DNA of 64,000 nucleotides from an uncultured Bacillota bacterium (lineage in GTDB: Bacteria; Bacillota; Clostridia; Oscillospirales; Oscillospiraceae). How positions within the stretch are numbered: the first letter of the stretch is position 1; the number at the start of each line of letters is the position of its first letter. Below are positions 6,734-9,394 of the stretch, piece after piece. The stretch covers positions 1 to 64,000 of the forward strand of contig CANSDP010000009.1 of NCBI GenBank assembly GCA_947645675.1, written 5' to 3'. Position numbers and translations under genes: made by a program. The notes under the pieces were generated by a model. That model saw nothing but the letters and a program-made list of their open reading frames with translations. It searched no databases and was not told where the DNA came from.

Positions 6734-6883
6734 CTATTCCTCCTCTAGAATTTGCTCCTCCGCCTTGACTTGCGCGCGCTCCAGCAGCCGCGCTGCGGCG
6801 GACACATCCAAGCGCCCCAACGCCTCCAGCGCATCGGTCGCGGCGTTGAACATCATGTGATACAGCATCTTGTAGTCGGTCAT
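6734..6883 (-). CDS. 49-residue acidic helical protein divergent from XRE regulator
   Basis: A short gene on the minus strand. ATG 6883 is preceded by a near-perfect ribosome site (GGGAGGAGGTAGGAAA) and the frame ends at TAG 6734-6736. The product begins MTDYKMLYHMMFNAATDALE and ends AEEQILEEE. It looks like two amphipathic helices with an acidic tail and has no membrane segment. I recall similar short proteins in clostridial genomes and prophages, with unknown function. A perfect-consensus promoter lies 45-70 bp upstream, flanked by an inverted repeat, so expression is probably controlled by the divergent XRE protein. Confidence 0.75.
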   Translation of the reverse strand: MTDYKMLYHMMFNAATDALEALGRLDVSAAARLLERAQVKAEEQILEEE

Positions 6884-6915
6884 TTTCCTACCTCCTCCCT
6901 ATATAATATTATCAT

Positions 6916-6979
6916 TCTATTGATATAATTATATATTAAAGTATGAGAATTGTCAATCAATAGATACGCCCTTTATTAT
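6916..6979. promoter_or_regulatory. Divergent overlapping promoters with 9-bp inverted repeat
   Basis: Minus-strand promoter: TTGACA (complement of 6951-6956), 17-bp spacer, TATAAT (complement of 6928-6933), a full consensus match driving the 49-residue gene. Plus-strand promoter for the XRE gene: TTGTCA 6950-6955, 18-bp spacer, TATTAT 6974-6979. The two -35 boxes overlap on opposite strands. The inverted repeat TCTATTGAT (6916-6924) and ATCAATAGA (6956-6964) brackets the minus promoter and falls in the spacer of the plus promoter, fitting an XRE repressor operator. Binding is inferred. Confidence 0.7.
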
Positions 6980-7002
6980 ACAGTTTAGGAAGGGGGTATT
7001 TC

Positions 7003-7212
7003 ATGAAGGTTGTTCGTTTTTGTTTGAAGGAATATTTAGACAGCCACAAGATCAGCCGCTATGAGCTGTCAAAACGAGCTGGTATTGGATACCCTATCAT
7101 CGACGGCTACTACAAAAACAAGGTTTACCGCCTGGACGGCTACAACCTGGGCCGCATCATTGAGGCGCTGGACTGTCAACTCACCGACATCCTCACCGTC
7201 GTGGAGGAATAA
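7003..7212 (+). CDS. XRE/Cro-C1 family helix-turn-helix regulator
   Basis: A 69-residue protein consisting of little more than one Cro/C1-type HTH domain. The motif ISRYELSKRAGIGYPIIDGY (about residues 17-36) is the HTH, and the C-terminus IIEALDCQLTDILTVVEE is the usual closing helix. AGGAAGGGGG precedes ATG 7003. It is divergently transcribed from the 49-residue gene across the operator-like inverted repeat and immediately followed by the tandem peptide/antisense-RNA units. A repressor role, including autoregulation, is inferred from the layout. Confidence 0.85.
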   Translation: MKVVRFCLKEYLDSHKISRYELSKRAGIGYPIIDGYYKNKVYRLDGYNLGRIIEALDCQLTDILTVVEE

Positions 7213-7255
7213 AACAGACCCGCCCTCAAAAAAGAGAGCGGGCCTGTTCCACACC

Positions 7256-7390
7256 TTGACACGCAGAGGAACTCTGTGATATAATCAAGATGTGTAGGGC
7301 ATTGCTGAGCTTCGGCGATTTGGCCCGACGCGAGGATCAGAGATTCTAAGTCAAAGCTTAGAAACCGTCACTTGGCCGAGTGGCGGTTTC
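7256..7390 (+). ncRNA. Candidate antisense RNA 1 with its promoter
   Basis: Promoter TTGACA 7256-7261, 18-bp spacer, TATAAT 7280-7285. An RNA starting near 7292 would contain CTGAGCTTCGGCG, a probable small stem-loop with a UUCG-like loop, and end around the hairpin GAAACCGTCACTTGG...GTGGCGGTTTC (7361-7390). No credible gene or ribosome site exists in this direction. It would be antisense to the 3' part of the leftward peptide transcript, as in known 3'-overlapping type I antitoxins. The 3' end is uncertain because no long T run follows the hairpin. Confidence 0.6.
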
Positions 7391-7460
7391 ACTTTACCTT
7401 GACCTGAATTGTTACGGTATACTTGCCGATATGGAATGTAACCGTCATTGTCAAAGGCAT
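7389..7460 (-). CDS. 23-residue peptide, unit 1 (candidate type I toxin)
   Basis: ATG 7460 lies nine bases after AAAGGGGG. The peptide reads MPLTMTVTFHIGKYTVTIQV followed by KVK and stop. It alternates hydrophobic and polar residues (beta-strand-like) with a basic end and is not a classical membrane helix. The frame after its TGA continues NRHSAK, matching the end of the unit 2 peptide, so this copy appears to be shortened by a nonsense codon. The downstream hairpin starts at the stop codon. I recall short Firmicute peptides beginning MTVTFHIG, but their function is not established. Confidence 0.6.
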   Translation of the reverse strand: MPLTMTVTFHIGKYTVTIQVKVK

Positions 7461-7526
7461 GGGCATTCACCCCCTTTGCAGAGGTGTAGCCAAACCGCCG
7501 CCGCTTTGCCAGCGCACCTTACCGTC

Positions 7527-7555
7527 ATTTTACCAGCGGTTTCCCGCTCTGTCAA
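7527..7555 (-). promoter_or_regulatory. Promoter of peptide 1
   Basis: On the minus strand: TTGACA (complement of 7550-7555), 17-bp spacer, TAAAAT (complement of 7527-7532). It predicts a leader of about 60 bases before ATG 7460, long enough to fold over the ribosome site. Confidence 0.75.
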
Positions 7556-7602
7556 CAAAAACAGACCCGTCCTCAAAAAAGAGCACGGGCCTGTCCCACG
7601 CC

Positions 7603-7736
7603 TTGACACGCAGAAGAACTCTGTGATATAATCAGGGTGTGTAGGGCACTGCTGAGCTTCGGCGGTTTAGCTCGACTAGGTTATTATTTACAGTGGAAAT
7701 CCCACAGAAACCGTCACTTGGCCGAGTGGCGGTTTC
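7603..7736 (+). ncRNA. Candidate antisense RNA 2 with its promoter
   Basis: Same design as in unit 1: TTGACA 7603-7608, 18-bp spacer, TATAAT 7627-7632, predicted start near 7639, CTGAGCTTCGGCGG early in the RNA and the GAAACCG...CGGTTTC hairpin at 7707-7736. The middle (about 7670-7705) differs strongly from unit 1, which could give each RNA specificity for its own partner transcript. Antisense function is inferred. Confidence 0.6.
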
Positions 7737-7806
7737 CGCTTACCTTGACCTGGAACGTCACCGTGTAACCACGGAAGTGGCATGTGAACGTAATTGTCAT
7801 AGGCAT
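7714..7806 (-). CDS. 30-residue peptide, unit 2 (candidate type I toxin)
   Basis: ATG 7806 follows AAAGGGGGTGAGG. The peptide begins MPMTITFTCHFRGYTVTFQV and ends KVSGNRHSAK. It shares the alternating pattern and the YTVT.QVKV core with the unit 1 peptide but runs seven residues further. Its last codons and stop lie inside the conserved terminator-like hairpin, so coding and RNA structure overlap. Conservation of start, ribosome site and core between diverged copies argues that the peptide is really translated. Confidence 0.62.
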   Translation of the reverse strand: MPMTITFTCHFRGYTVTFQVKVSGNRHSAK

Positions 7807-7872
7807 CGAGCCTCACCCCCTTTCGGAGGATGTAGCCAAACCGCCGCCGCTTTGCCAGCGCACCTTACCGTC

Positions 7873-7901
7873 ATTTTACCAGCGATTTCCCGCCCTGTCA
7901 A
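7873..7901 (-). promoter_or_regulatory. Promoter of peptide 2
   Basis: On the minus strand: TTGACA (complement of 7896-7901), 17-bp spacer, TAAAAT (complement of 7873-7878), the same as in unit 1. Confidence 0.75.
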
Positions 7902-7918
7902 CAAAAACAGACCCGCCT

Positions 7919-7955
7919 AAAAAAAGAGCACGGGCCGTCCCGGCTGGGGCGGCCC
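7919..7955 (-). terminator. pyk terminator
   Basis: GGGCCGCCCC / GGGACGGCCC stem with a four-base loop, just after the pyk stop, followed on the minus strand by GTGCTCTTTTTTT. Confidence 0.8.
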
Positions 7956-7963
7956 AATCTTTG

Positions 7964-9394
7964 TTACATATCCTCTTCGTCGATAATCTGCGCCTTGATA
8001 AGGTTGGTGTAGCCGGTCTTGCCCAGGGGGACGCCGGCGGTGATGACCACCACGTCATGGTTCTGGACCAGGCGCTCCTTCACGGCCACCTCGCTGGCCA
8101 GGGAGAAGATACGGTCGGTGGAGGTGACCTCGCCGGTGAGGAAGGGGATGATGCCCCAGGAGATATTCAGCTGGCGGCGGACCTTCTCATGCATGGTGAG
8201 GGCGGCGATGGGGCAGGCGGGCCGGAAACGGCAGATCATTCGGGCGCTGCGGCCTGAGTTGGTGGCGGCCAGGATGGCCCTGGCGTTCAGGTCCTTGGCG
8301 GTAAGGCAGCAGGTGTGGGTGATGGCGTCGTTGATGTTGGAGGCGGGGAGAACTCTTTGCTTCTGGAACTGCTTCCAGTAGTCGATGGCGCTTTCCGTCT
8401 CGGTGACGATGCCCACCATGGCCTGGAGGGCCTCCACGGGGTACTTGCCCCCGGCGGTCTCGCCGGACAGCATGACGCAGCCGGTGCCGTCATAGACCGC
8501 GTTGGCCACGTCGGACACCTCCGCCCGGGTGGGCCGGGGATTGCGCATCATGGAGTCCAGCATCTGGGTGGCGGTGATGACCGGCTTGCCCTGTTGGAGC
8601 CCCTTGCGGATCATCTGCTTTTGCAGGATGGGCACCCGGGCGGCTGGGATCTCCACGCCCAGGTCGCCCCGGGCTACCATGATGCCGTCGGCGGCGGTCA
8701 GGATCTCGTCCAGGTTGTCCACGCCCTCCTGATTCTCGATTTTTGCGATGATCTTCACGTCATCCCCGCCGCACTCATGGAGGACGGCCCGGACAGCCTC
8801 AACGTCGGCCGCCCGGCGGACAAAGGAGGCGGCGATAAAGTCAAAATCATTCTCCACGCCAAAGCGGATATCGGCGATGTCCTTCTCGGTGAGGGCGGGC
8901 AGCTGGATATGAACCCCGGGGATGTTGATGGACTTGTTGGCCGACAGAGTGCCGCCGTTCTCCACGGTGCAGATGATCCTGGTGTCCTCGATCCGGTCCA
9001 CCCGGACGGCAACCAGACCGTCGTCAATCAAAATTTCCTGGCCGGGCTGGAGCTCCTCATGGAGCCTGGGGTAGGTGACCGACACCCAGCCCTGGTTGCC
9101 CACCACGTCCTCGGTGGTCAGGGTGAAGGGGTCCCCCGCCTCCAGGGTAATGGACTTTGTGTCAAAGCTCTTGATGCGTATCTCGGGACCCTTGGTGTCC
9201 AGAATGGTAGCCACCGGCCGGCCCATGGCGTCCCGGACCGACTTGAGCCGGTTCAGCCGCTCCAGGTGCTCCGGGTGACTGCCGTGGGAAAAATTGAACC
9301 GGGCCGCGTCCATGCCGGTGCGGATGAGGGTGCGGATCATTTCCACATCGTCCACCGCGGGGCCCAGGGTACAGATAATTTTTGTTCTTCTCAT
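7964..9394 (-). CDS. pyk: Pyruvate kinase
   Basis: A 476-residue cytosolic glycolytic enzyme converting phosphoenolpyruvate and ADP to pyruvate and ATP. N-terminal RRTKIICTLGPA and the ARFNFSHGSHPEH substrate loop, the catalytic lysine region KIIAKIENQEG, the metal site MVARGDLGVEIP and CVMLSGETAGGKYPVEA are all intact. The length fits the short class without the extra C-terminal PEP-utiliser-like domain found in Bacillus. AAAGGAGG precedes ATG 9394. Transcribed alone, with its own terminator. Confidence 0.97.
   Translation of the reverse strand: MRRTKIICTLGPAVDDVEMIRTLIRTGMDAARFNFSHGSHPEHLERLNRLKSVRDAMGRPVATILDTKGPEIRIKSFDTKSITLEAGDPFTLTTEDVVGNQGWVSVTYPRLHEELQPGQEILIDDGLVAVRVDRIEDTRIICTVENGGTLSANKSINIPGVHIQLPALTEKDIADIRFGVENDFDFIAASFVRRAADVEAVRAVLHECGGDDVKIIAKIENQEGVDNLDEILTAADGIMVARGDLGVEIPAARVPILQKQMIRKGLQQGKPVITATQMLDSMMRNPRPTRAEVSDVANAVYDGTGCVMLSGETAGGKYPVEALQAMVGIVTETESAIDYWKQFQKQRVLPASNINDAITHTCCLTAKDLNARAILAATNSGRSARMICRFRPACPIAALTMHEKVRRQLNISWGIIPFLTGEVTSTDRIFSLASEVAVKERLVQNHDVVVITAGVPLGKTGYTNLIKAQIIDEEDM

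What the first reader, a model, noticed from the sequence alone, without database searches (positions are those of the whole stretch)
7211..7960. Duplicated type I toxin-antitoxin-like system with very short non-hydrophobic peptides
Two tandem ~347-bp units each carry two opposed consensus promoters: leftward TTGACA-N17-TAAAAT for a 23 or 30 residue peptide with a strong ribosome site, and rightward TTGACA-N18-TATAAT for an RNA with no coding potential that overlaps the peptide transcript's 3' part. This is the layout of 3'-overlapping type I modules such as txpA/ratA. The peptides (core YTVT.QVKV) are beta-like and basic, unlike the usual membrane-helix toxins, so this may be an undescribed family or a different kind of antisense-controlled peptide. 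The mid-regions of the RNAs differ, as expected if each pair is specific.
Basis: partly seen in the sequence, partly recalled or inferred. Interest (0 to 1): 0.85.

Follow-up and report, generated by a model that had tools for sequence, protein, structure and literature searches.

The report
Antisense-controlled beta-hairpin peptide toxin candidates
Two neighbouring copies of a tiny, unannotated gene module make a 23-30 residue peptide and an opposing RNA that should silence it; the module is widespread in gut clostridia and looks like a new kind of RNA-controlled toxin-antitoxin system, although toxicity has not been tested.

Summary
In detail: two ~347-bp tandem units each carry near-perfect opposed promoters, a 23/30-residue ORF with a ribosome site, and a predicted rightward antisense RNA overlapping the ORF end and 3'UTR. 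They belong to a large unannotated family. Of 94 ORFs scored in them, 86 match a peptide profile built from the window's genus. The peptide frame is under purifying selection, AlphaFold gives a beta-hairpin, and the antisense promoter is strong in 87 of 93 ORF-bearing units. The mRNA is predicted to have a sequestered ribosome site and a coevolving 5'-3' clamp, as in some type I toxin mRNAs. Two of the 94 carry a hydrophobic toxin-like peptide in the same RNA frame. Tandem copies with identical leader and ORF can differ completely in the ~30-nt middle of the antisense RNA. Best reading: type I toxin-antitoxin-like family with beta-hairpin peptides, a new variant of a known kind. Transcripts and toxicity untested.

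The parts
7527..7555 (-). Unit 1 peptide-mRNA promoter (TTGACA-17-TAAAAT)
7488..7505 (-). Unit 1 leader arm of the 5'-3' clamp (AGCGGCGGCGGTTTGGCT)
   Evidence: family coevolution
7470..7484 (-). Unit 1 possible hairpin over the ribosome site (CCTCT-GCAA-AGGGG); the minimum-energy fold pairs the site differently
   Evidence: sequence; family statistics
7389..7460 (-). Unit 1 ORF, 23 aa MPLTMTVTFHIGKYTVTIQVKVK, candidate toxin peptide
   Evidence: family
7361..7390 (.). Unit 1 hairpin at the ORF end; predicted terminator of the antisense RNA
   Evidence: family
7330..7359 (.). Unit 1 middle region, unlike that of unit 2 (proposed pairing address)
   Evidence: family
7302..7329 (-). Unit 1 3'UTR arm of the 5'-3' clamp (ends approximate)
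7256..7285 (+). Unit 1 antisense RNA promoter (TTGACA-18-TATAAT)
   Evidence: family
7292..7398 (+). Unit 1 predicted antisense RNA (ends inferred)
7212..7249 (-). Unit 1 terminator of the peptide mRNA, next to the antisense -35 box
7873..7901 (-). Unit 2 peptide-mRNA promoter (TTGACA-17-TAAAAT)
7834..7851 (-). Unit 2 leader arm of the 5'-3' clamp
7816..7829 (-). Unit 2 hairpin over the ribosome site
   Evidence: family
7714..7806 (-). Unit 2 ORF, 30 aa MPMTITFTCHFRGYTVTFQVKVSGNRHSAK, candidate toxin peptide
   Evidence: family
7707..7736 (.). Unit 2 hairpin; encodes the NRHSAK tail and is the predicted antisense terminator
   Evidence: family
7677..7705 (.). Unit 2 middle region, unlike that of unit 1 (proposed pairing address)
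   Evidence: family
7645..7676 (-). Unit 2 3'UTR arm of the 5'-3' clamp (ends approximate)
7603..7632 (+). Unit 2 antisense RNA promoter (TTGACA-18-TATAAT)
   Evidence: family
7639..7745 (+). Unit 2 predicted antisense RNA (ends inferred)
7560..7595 (-). Unit 2 terminator of the peptide mRNA

Best explanation
Each unit is a type I toxin-antitoxin-like module. The leftward mRNA encodes a 20-30 residue amphipathic, basic beta-hairpin peptide that probably stops growth when made in excess (inferred). The full-length mRNA is held untranslated by a local hairpin over its ribosome site and by pairing of its 5' leader with its 3'UTR (both predicted; the clamp coevolves), so it probably needs 3' trimming to become active (inferred from hok/aapA). 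The ~100-nt rightward RNA starts from a strong promoter inside the 3'UTR and ends at a hairpin that overlaps the end of the ORF. It is fully complementary to the mRNA, and the duplex would be destroyed by RNase III, as for txpA and yonT in Bacillus (inferred). Recognition would start in the ~30-nt middle region and the hairpin loop, which differ between copies, so that each antisense RNA guards mainly its own mRNA (inferred).
For: Peptide frame: pN/pS 0.18 in 28 sequences of the 25-aa class against 2.69 and 2.15 in the shifted forward frames; 0.39 in 21 of the 27-aa class against 0.94 and 1.62. 86 of 94 ORF cores 5' of the fixed pattern match a profile from the window's genus, against 1 of 1880 shuffled. 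Antisense promoter at least 10 of 12 in 87 of 93 ORF-bearing units and 28 of 35 others, against 2.1% of shuffles; its distance from the hairpin has median 67 nt, range 51-79, in ORF-bearing units scoring 9 or more. Leader-3'UTR duplex: cognate mean -52.0 kcal/mol, non-cognate -38.8, 0 of 10000 permutations as low. Ribosome-site hairpin of 5 or more pairs in 80 of 94 against 24.7% of shuffles. Whole-mRNA folds z -8.3 and -6.5. Two of 94 units have a hydrophobic peptide in the same RNA frame. Units that lost the ORF start but keep the antisense gene. Same-genome copies with 100% identical leader and ORF and a middle region at chance identity. AlphaFold beta-hairpin, strands 3-11 and 14-22.
Against: No transcript, translation or toxicity data. 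The peptides lack the membrane helix usual in type I toxins (maximum 15-residue hydropathy 0.65 and 0.45 for the window peptides, against 3.09 and 2.62 for the two hydrophobic ones). The mRNA promoter is less regular: at least 10 of 12 in 47 of 90, shuffles 1.2%. The hydrophobic swap rests on 2 units. Ribosome-site hairpins also arise in a quarter to a third of shuffles, and the best fold of window unit 1 pairs its site differently. Some antisense reading frames score low too: 0.28 in the 25-aa class, 0.52 and 0.63 in the 27-aa class, as expected where third positions align. AlphaFold pTM is only 0.35. The antisense fold of unit 2 is only moderately stable (z -2.8, 2 of 200 shuffles as good).
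Confidence: 0.77

Rival explanations
1. An antisense-controlled small peptide that is not a self-toxin: a secreted antimicrobial, a signal, or a regulator of membrane or ribosome.
For: Cationic amphipathic beta-hairpins resemble antimicrobial beta-hairpin peptides (recalled); no toxicity data; many copies per genome (15 profile matches in one).
Against: No export gene or signal sequence seen within the unit (by inspection, not searched). The layered translation block, the antisense-only remnants and the swap with hydrophobic toxin-like peptides in the same RNA frame are what a harmful peptide would need.
Confidence: 0.15
2. A MITE-like or other repetitive mobile DNA element; the ORF is incidental.
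For: Multi-copy, tandem and dispersed; the leader and the antisense 5' end are inverted repeats of each other.
Against: Frame-specific purifying selection and cognate leader/3'UTR pairing. The symporter / pyruvate-kinase locus holds units in several species, so part of the family is inherited in place. Element ends and target-site duplications were not tested.
Confidence: 0.04
3. A cis regulatory leader or attenuator for a neighbouring gene.
For: The unit lies beside an HTH gene and pyruvate kinase.
Against: Own promoter and own terminator; neighbours differ between copies.
Confidence: 0.02

Closest known systems
txpA/ratA, bsrG/SR4 and yonT 3'-overlapping type I modules of Bacillus subtilis (layouts recalled)
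   Same: Short ORF with its own promoter; convergent antisense RNA covering the ORF end and 3'UTR. RNase III silencing of txpA and yonT seen in a passage of PMC10100781.
   Different: Those toxins are hydrophobic membrane peptides (recalled); no Pfam or NCBIfam toxin family matches these peptides.
hok/sok and aapA/IsoA (mRNA with 5'-3' long-distance interaction)
   Same: Inactive full-length mRNA by 5'-3' pairing, ribosome site hidden in structure, antisense RNA; aapA in several chromosomal copies (passages of PMC6733600).
   Different: Here the clamp lies upstream of the ribosome site rather than on it; the peptide is predicted as a beta-hairpin.
Clostridioides difficile type I systems (CD2517.1-RCd8 and others)
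   Same: Clostridia; convergent overlapping toxin and antitoxin genes; several copies; mostly cognate-specific antitoxins (section 2 of PMC6563280).
   Different: 34-53 aa toxins with a hydrophobic membrane segment and charged end; not compared with these peptides residue by residue.
YrzI family small proteins (TIGR02413)
   Same: A weak N-terminal resemblance: 1 of 62 members at E 0.0093, others at 0.036 and 0.098.
   Different: 12.8-14.2 bits against a cut-off of 47.05; the model has 46 positions; not described as a toxin-antitoxin pair in the passages read.

Membership tests
Type I toxin-antitoxin system | Small ORF with ribosome site, under selection as protein | tested here: met
Type I toxin-antitoxin system | Antisense RNA gene overlapping the toxin mRNA, with its own promoter | tested here: met
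   promoter and terminator-like hairpin in sequence only; transcription itself not testable
Type I toxin-antitoxin system | Translation-blocking mRNA structure | tested here: met
   predicted, clamp coevolving; no biochemical test
Type I toxin-antitoxin system | Peptide toxic when overproduced | not testable with these tools
   needs inducible expression
Type I toxin-antitoxin system | Antisense RNA neutralises the toxin mRNA | not testable with these tools
   needs deletion and co-expression
Type I toxin-antitoxin system | Hydrophobic membrane-helix toxin (usual, not universal: RalR and SymE are cytosolic, PMC8309996 passages) | tested here: not met
   beta-hairpin and low hydropathy; 2 of 94 units have a hydrophobic peptide
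Curated type I toxin families such as TxpA, Fst, holin-like (names recalled) | Sequence match to a curated family | tested here: not met
   no Pfam match and no toxin family in NCBIfam at E 0.01 for 62 members; the two hydrophobic variants also reach no cut-off
YrzI family (TIGR02413) | Score over the curated cut-off | tested here: not met
   12.8-14.2 bits against 47.05
Known Rfam antitoxin RNA | Match to a covariance model | tested here: not met
   none in the units at gathering score; only matches with E 0.63 or more below it

The most novel reading that the evidence does not exclude
A large, unannotated class of type I toxin-antitoxin modules in gut clostridia whose toxin is a beta-hairpin, carried on an RNA chassis that can swap toxins (beta-hairpin or membrane helix). 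Each copy keeps a private ~30-nt antisense address while leader and ORF are homogenised, so that every copy in an array stays individually addictive and cannot be lost under cover of its neighbour.
Probability: 0.45. Interest if true: 0.85.

Novelty: new variant of a known kind. Interest (0 to 1): 0.75.

Why it matters
Gut clostridia, with a Faecalibacterium prausnitzii strain among them (one unit seen, L194), carry an unannotated RNA-controlled peptide gene, with 15 profile matches in one genome of the window's genus. In a 2019 review the validated type I systems of Clostridia were all from C. difficile, with hydrophobic toxins (PMC6563280, section 2). A beta-hairpin toxin would break the membrane-helix rule, and tandem copies that differ almost only in the antisense address are natural experiments on how RNA pairs keep apart.

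Tried and rejected
Family look-ups: Pfam and NCBIfam for the window peptides, with an HTH_26 hit only for the neighbouring gene, and for 62 peptides; PHROGs, 1 of 62 at E 0.003, an unnamed family; PDB, 0. Rfam gave nothing for the units. Phage records: no match. Plasmids: one record, Vescimonas fastidiosa. Both used one 25-aa query.

A sample of the class with the strict pattern found only 2 of 291 genomes, one of them the window's own, so that pattern is not a prevalence measure. The peptide profile gave 11 of 245 in the order and 15 of 33 in the genus, the own genome counted in both.

My prediction that near-identical units in different genomes would share the middle region was mostly not met: of 40 different-genome pairs with at least 90% upstream identity only 4 had at least 80% identity there. 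Those 4 look like orthologues, the rest like different copies. I therefore claim variability between copies, not conservation across species. Four of the 40 pairs involve L048, whose middle was cut to 4 nt by my expression.

The window's unit 1 has AAATCG where the scripts ask for AACCG, so the window pair itself is not in those counts; its middle is judged.

The wrong-frame ORFs printed for L012, L016, L031, L038 and L045 come from my expression taking the first ATG; the family frame is open there (read from the DNA). L014 appears twice in that list.

YrzI was followed and dropped as below cut-off. Paper searches gave no description of this family; one search searched literal peptide strings. 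bioRxiv, most subscription papers and all supplementary tables were out of reach, so earlier small-protein catalogues may list the ORFs.

Full report
WHAT IS THERE. Between a symporter-like gene plus a small HTH gene (7003-7212, Pfam HTH_26) and a pyruvate-kinase-like gene (7964-9394, -; both large genes named from their sequence, recalled) lie two tandem units, 7211-7560 and 7558-7906, 82% identical. Each has a leftward promoter (11 of 12) and a rightward promoter (12 of 12) facing it. The leftward RNA has a leader, a ribosome site, a 23- or 30-aa ORF and a 3'UTR, and would end at a 15-16 bp hairpin with a U-run just past the -35 box of the rightward promoter, so it reads across the whole rightward gene. 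The rightward RNA would run about 105 nt and end at the hairpin GAAACCGTCAC..GTGGCGGTTTC, which in the leftward RNA is the end of the ORF (NRHSAK in unit 2) or lies at its stop (unit 1).

A FAMILY. The same genome has eight peptide-profile matches at E 0.01 or better, the window's two included, six at 0.001. Of 99 sampled genomes, own included, 28 have DNA matches at E 0.001, some of them short, with 13 in one genome. With the peptide profile, 15 of 33 genomes of the genus have one, up to 15 matches in one genome, and 11 of 245 in the order, own included each time. By their record titles nearly all are Clostridia: Oscillospiraceae, Lachnospiraceae, Gemmiger formicilis, Evtepia gabavorous, Faecalibacterium prausnitzii ATCC 27768. 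A few are probably chance (a Proteobacteria MAG, L153; Pseudoflavitalea, L160). Nine IMG/VR contigs match too; seven show an intact peptide of the family, one a variant (L204), and in one no ORF ended at the hairpin (L198).

THE PEPTIDE IS A PROTEIN. Of the 129, 96 had a ribosome site and an ORF ending at the hairpin, 94 of them unique with enough leader. Cut to the codons 5' of the fixed pattern, 86 of 94 match a profile made from the genus only, against 1 of 1880 shuffled versions (85 of 94 and 2 of 1880 with the tails); a few of the 94 come from that genus themselves. In two classes picked from the 94 by length and start, pN/pS is 0.18 (28 sequences) and 0.39 (21 sequences), against 0.94-2.69 in the shifted forward frames; antisense frames gave 1.11, 5.80, 0.28 and 0.63, 2.03, 0.52. 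The hairpin-encoded tail behaves differently (0.66, 0.76), and its residues change in pairs: S with K 52, P with R 25, S with Q 4, Q with G 2, R with G 2, of 85. That is what base-pairing in the hairpin stem would give, and some peptides, unit 1's among them, lack the tail, so the core M-x-T-x-T-F-H-x-x-G-x-T-V-T-I-x-V-K is the peptide. AlphaFold with 62 relatives gives a two-strand hairpin, residues 3-11 and 14-22; pLDDT by blocks of ten 87, 92, 66; pTM 0.35. The strands alternate polar and apolar residues and are basic.

THE mRNA IS LOCKED (PREDICTED). Leader and 3'UTR pair: the cognate mean is -52.0 kcal/mol, non-cognate -38.8, and the lowest of 10000 permutations -41.1. The letters change together (GGTTTGGC with GCCAAACC, GGTTCAGC with GCTGAACC, GGTTTCGC with GCGAAACC, GGTCCGGC with GCCGGACC). 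A hairpin of at least 5 pairs covers the ribosome site in 80 of 94, against 24.7% of shuffles; of 84 hairpins scored with 4 or more pairs, 30 have a four-base GNRA loop. The window's two mRNAs fold with the clamp, the ORF-end hairpin and the terminator, z -8.3 and -6.5; unit 2 also shows the ribosome-site hairpin, unit 1 pairs that site with a nearby stretch. The same logic is known for hok and aapA (passages of PMC6733600).

THE ANTISENSE RNA LOOKS LIKE A GENE. Of 128 of the 129 matches with enough flank, its promoter scores at least 10 of 12 in 87 of 93 ORF-bearing units and 28 of 35 others (shuffles 2.1%), while the mRNA promoter does so in 47 of 90 (shuffles 1.2%); the distance from antisense -10 box to hairpin is 51-79 nt, median 67, in ORF-bearing units scoring 9 or more. 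The 12 nt that become its 3' tail hold 6.55 U on average, 3.21 expected, supplied in part by Lys codons: AAA 87, AAG 16 next to the hairpin, against 18 and 24 elsewhere. Several places keep the antisense gene and have lost the start of the ORF: L096 (1480), L097 (1158), L099, L117 (2129), L119 (3437), L129, L145, L148, L157, L170, L176, each with a promoter of 11 or 12. In L117 and L119 such an antisense-only gene follows a full unit. This is what antitoxin remnants would look like. The rest of the 35 are mixed: some cut by contig ends, some with an intact frame that my filter missed (L139, L161, L166, L167), one a duplicate (L106), and seven score under 9, some of them perhaps chance.

TOXIN SWAP. 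L107 and L175 have the same hairpin, a leader/3'UTR complement and an antisense promoter (read), but encode VSDFEIIMILLTIISLLISIHKK and MYVTFDAFFGFFDVIIGLLGLITSIASLIIAIINLQKK, toxin-like hydrophobic peptides with a Lys end. They reach no curated family cut-off. It is only 2 of 94, but it ties the beta-hairpin peptides to toxin-like ones through a shared RNA frame.

PRIVATE ADDRESSES. Among 20 pairs of units within 1.5 kb, 10 have leader identity over 0.7 and clamp identity over 0.8; over these, mean identity is 0.90 leader, 0.85 ORF, 0.90 hairpin, 0.94 clamp plus promoter, but 0.57 in the ~30-nt middle, where shuffled sequence gives 0.48. Three pairs (L042, L106, and Vescimonas fastidiosa L210) are identical over 116 nt of leader and ORF, with middles at 0.51, 0.56 and 0.47. 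Of all 7 same-genome pairs with at least 90% upstream identity, 6 have middles of 0.47-0.61; the seventh (L212/L222, both near contig starts) is identical there. Neutral drift should not leave synonymous sites untouched and scramble 30 nt beside them; selection on the antisense address, with conversion of the flanks, could (inference). Of 40 different-genome pairs 4 share the middle (0.83-1.00), which look like orthologues; I had expected more. The window's two units fit: their middles, 7330-7359 and 7677-7705, fall outside both repeat blocks.

MECHANISM, SHOWN AND INFERRED. Shown in sequence: frame under selection, two promoters, terminator, complementarity, coevolving clamp, private middle. 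Predicted: ribosome-site hairpin, beta-hairpin fold. Inferred: transcription, toxicity, need for 3' trimming, RNase III decay of the duplex (as for txpA and yonT, passage in PMC10100781), recognition through the middle region. The peptide target is unknown; an amphipathic cationic hairpin suggests the membrane.

COMPARISON. Layout as txpA/ratA (recalled), mRNA logic as hok and aapA, several copies and cognate specificity as in C. difficile (PMC6563280 section 2), but a beta-hairpin instead of a membrane helix (norm: PMC8309996 passages). No curated family over cut-off, Rfam model or paper found. Hence 'new variant of a known kind', conditional on toxicity.

Noticed in passing
window 6734-7212 and relatives L009, L012, L013, L015, L016, L019, L038, L044, L104: A 49-aa ORF and a divergent 69-aa HTH_26 protein stand beside the units in these loci; in L013, L015, L019, L038 and L044 the pyruvate-kinase gene is near too. 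A conserved small cassette of unknown function.
   Followed up: partly
L003 1060-1260 (own genome C2): A hydrophobic frame (...NITLSDIGIICGILGFLFQVVTYIHDHKKK) with a hairpin at its stop and an opposing promoter-like site lies directly beside a beta-hairpin unit: perhaps a second, different type I-like module. Its start codon is unclear; no family match.
   Followed up: partly
window 7904-7936: A third partial copy of the terminator block upstream of unit 2, perhaps the remnant of a further unit or now the terminator of pyruvate kinase.
   Followed up: no
L132 235-303, L189 235-318, L204 near 7018-7085: Peptides of the same frame with a different core (MKFTVTVVVEFLDCVLRIVFKKK, MEITLVIKFLEYNIRIVLKK..., VRLTITLTLRKLMLQIIVK...): possible further toxin classes.
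   Followed up: no
L210 3800-4700 (Vescimonas fastidiosa pMM35_01): Two full units with identical leader and ORF core and one facing antisense-only gene between a LysR gene and nadE, with no feature listed there in the PLSDB table, which is incomplete.
   Followed up: partly
own genome C5:12023-12058 and L080, L194: Weak resemblance of the core to the N-terminus of Bacillus YrzI small proteins; far below cut-off.
   Followed up: partly
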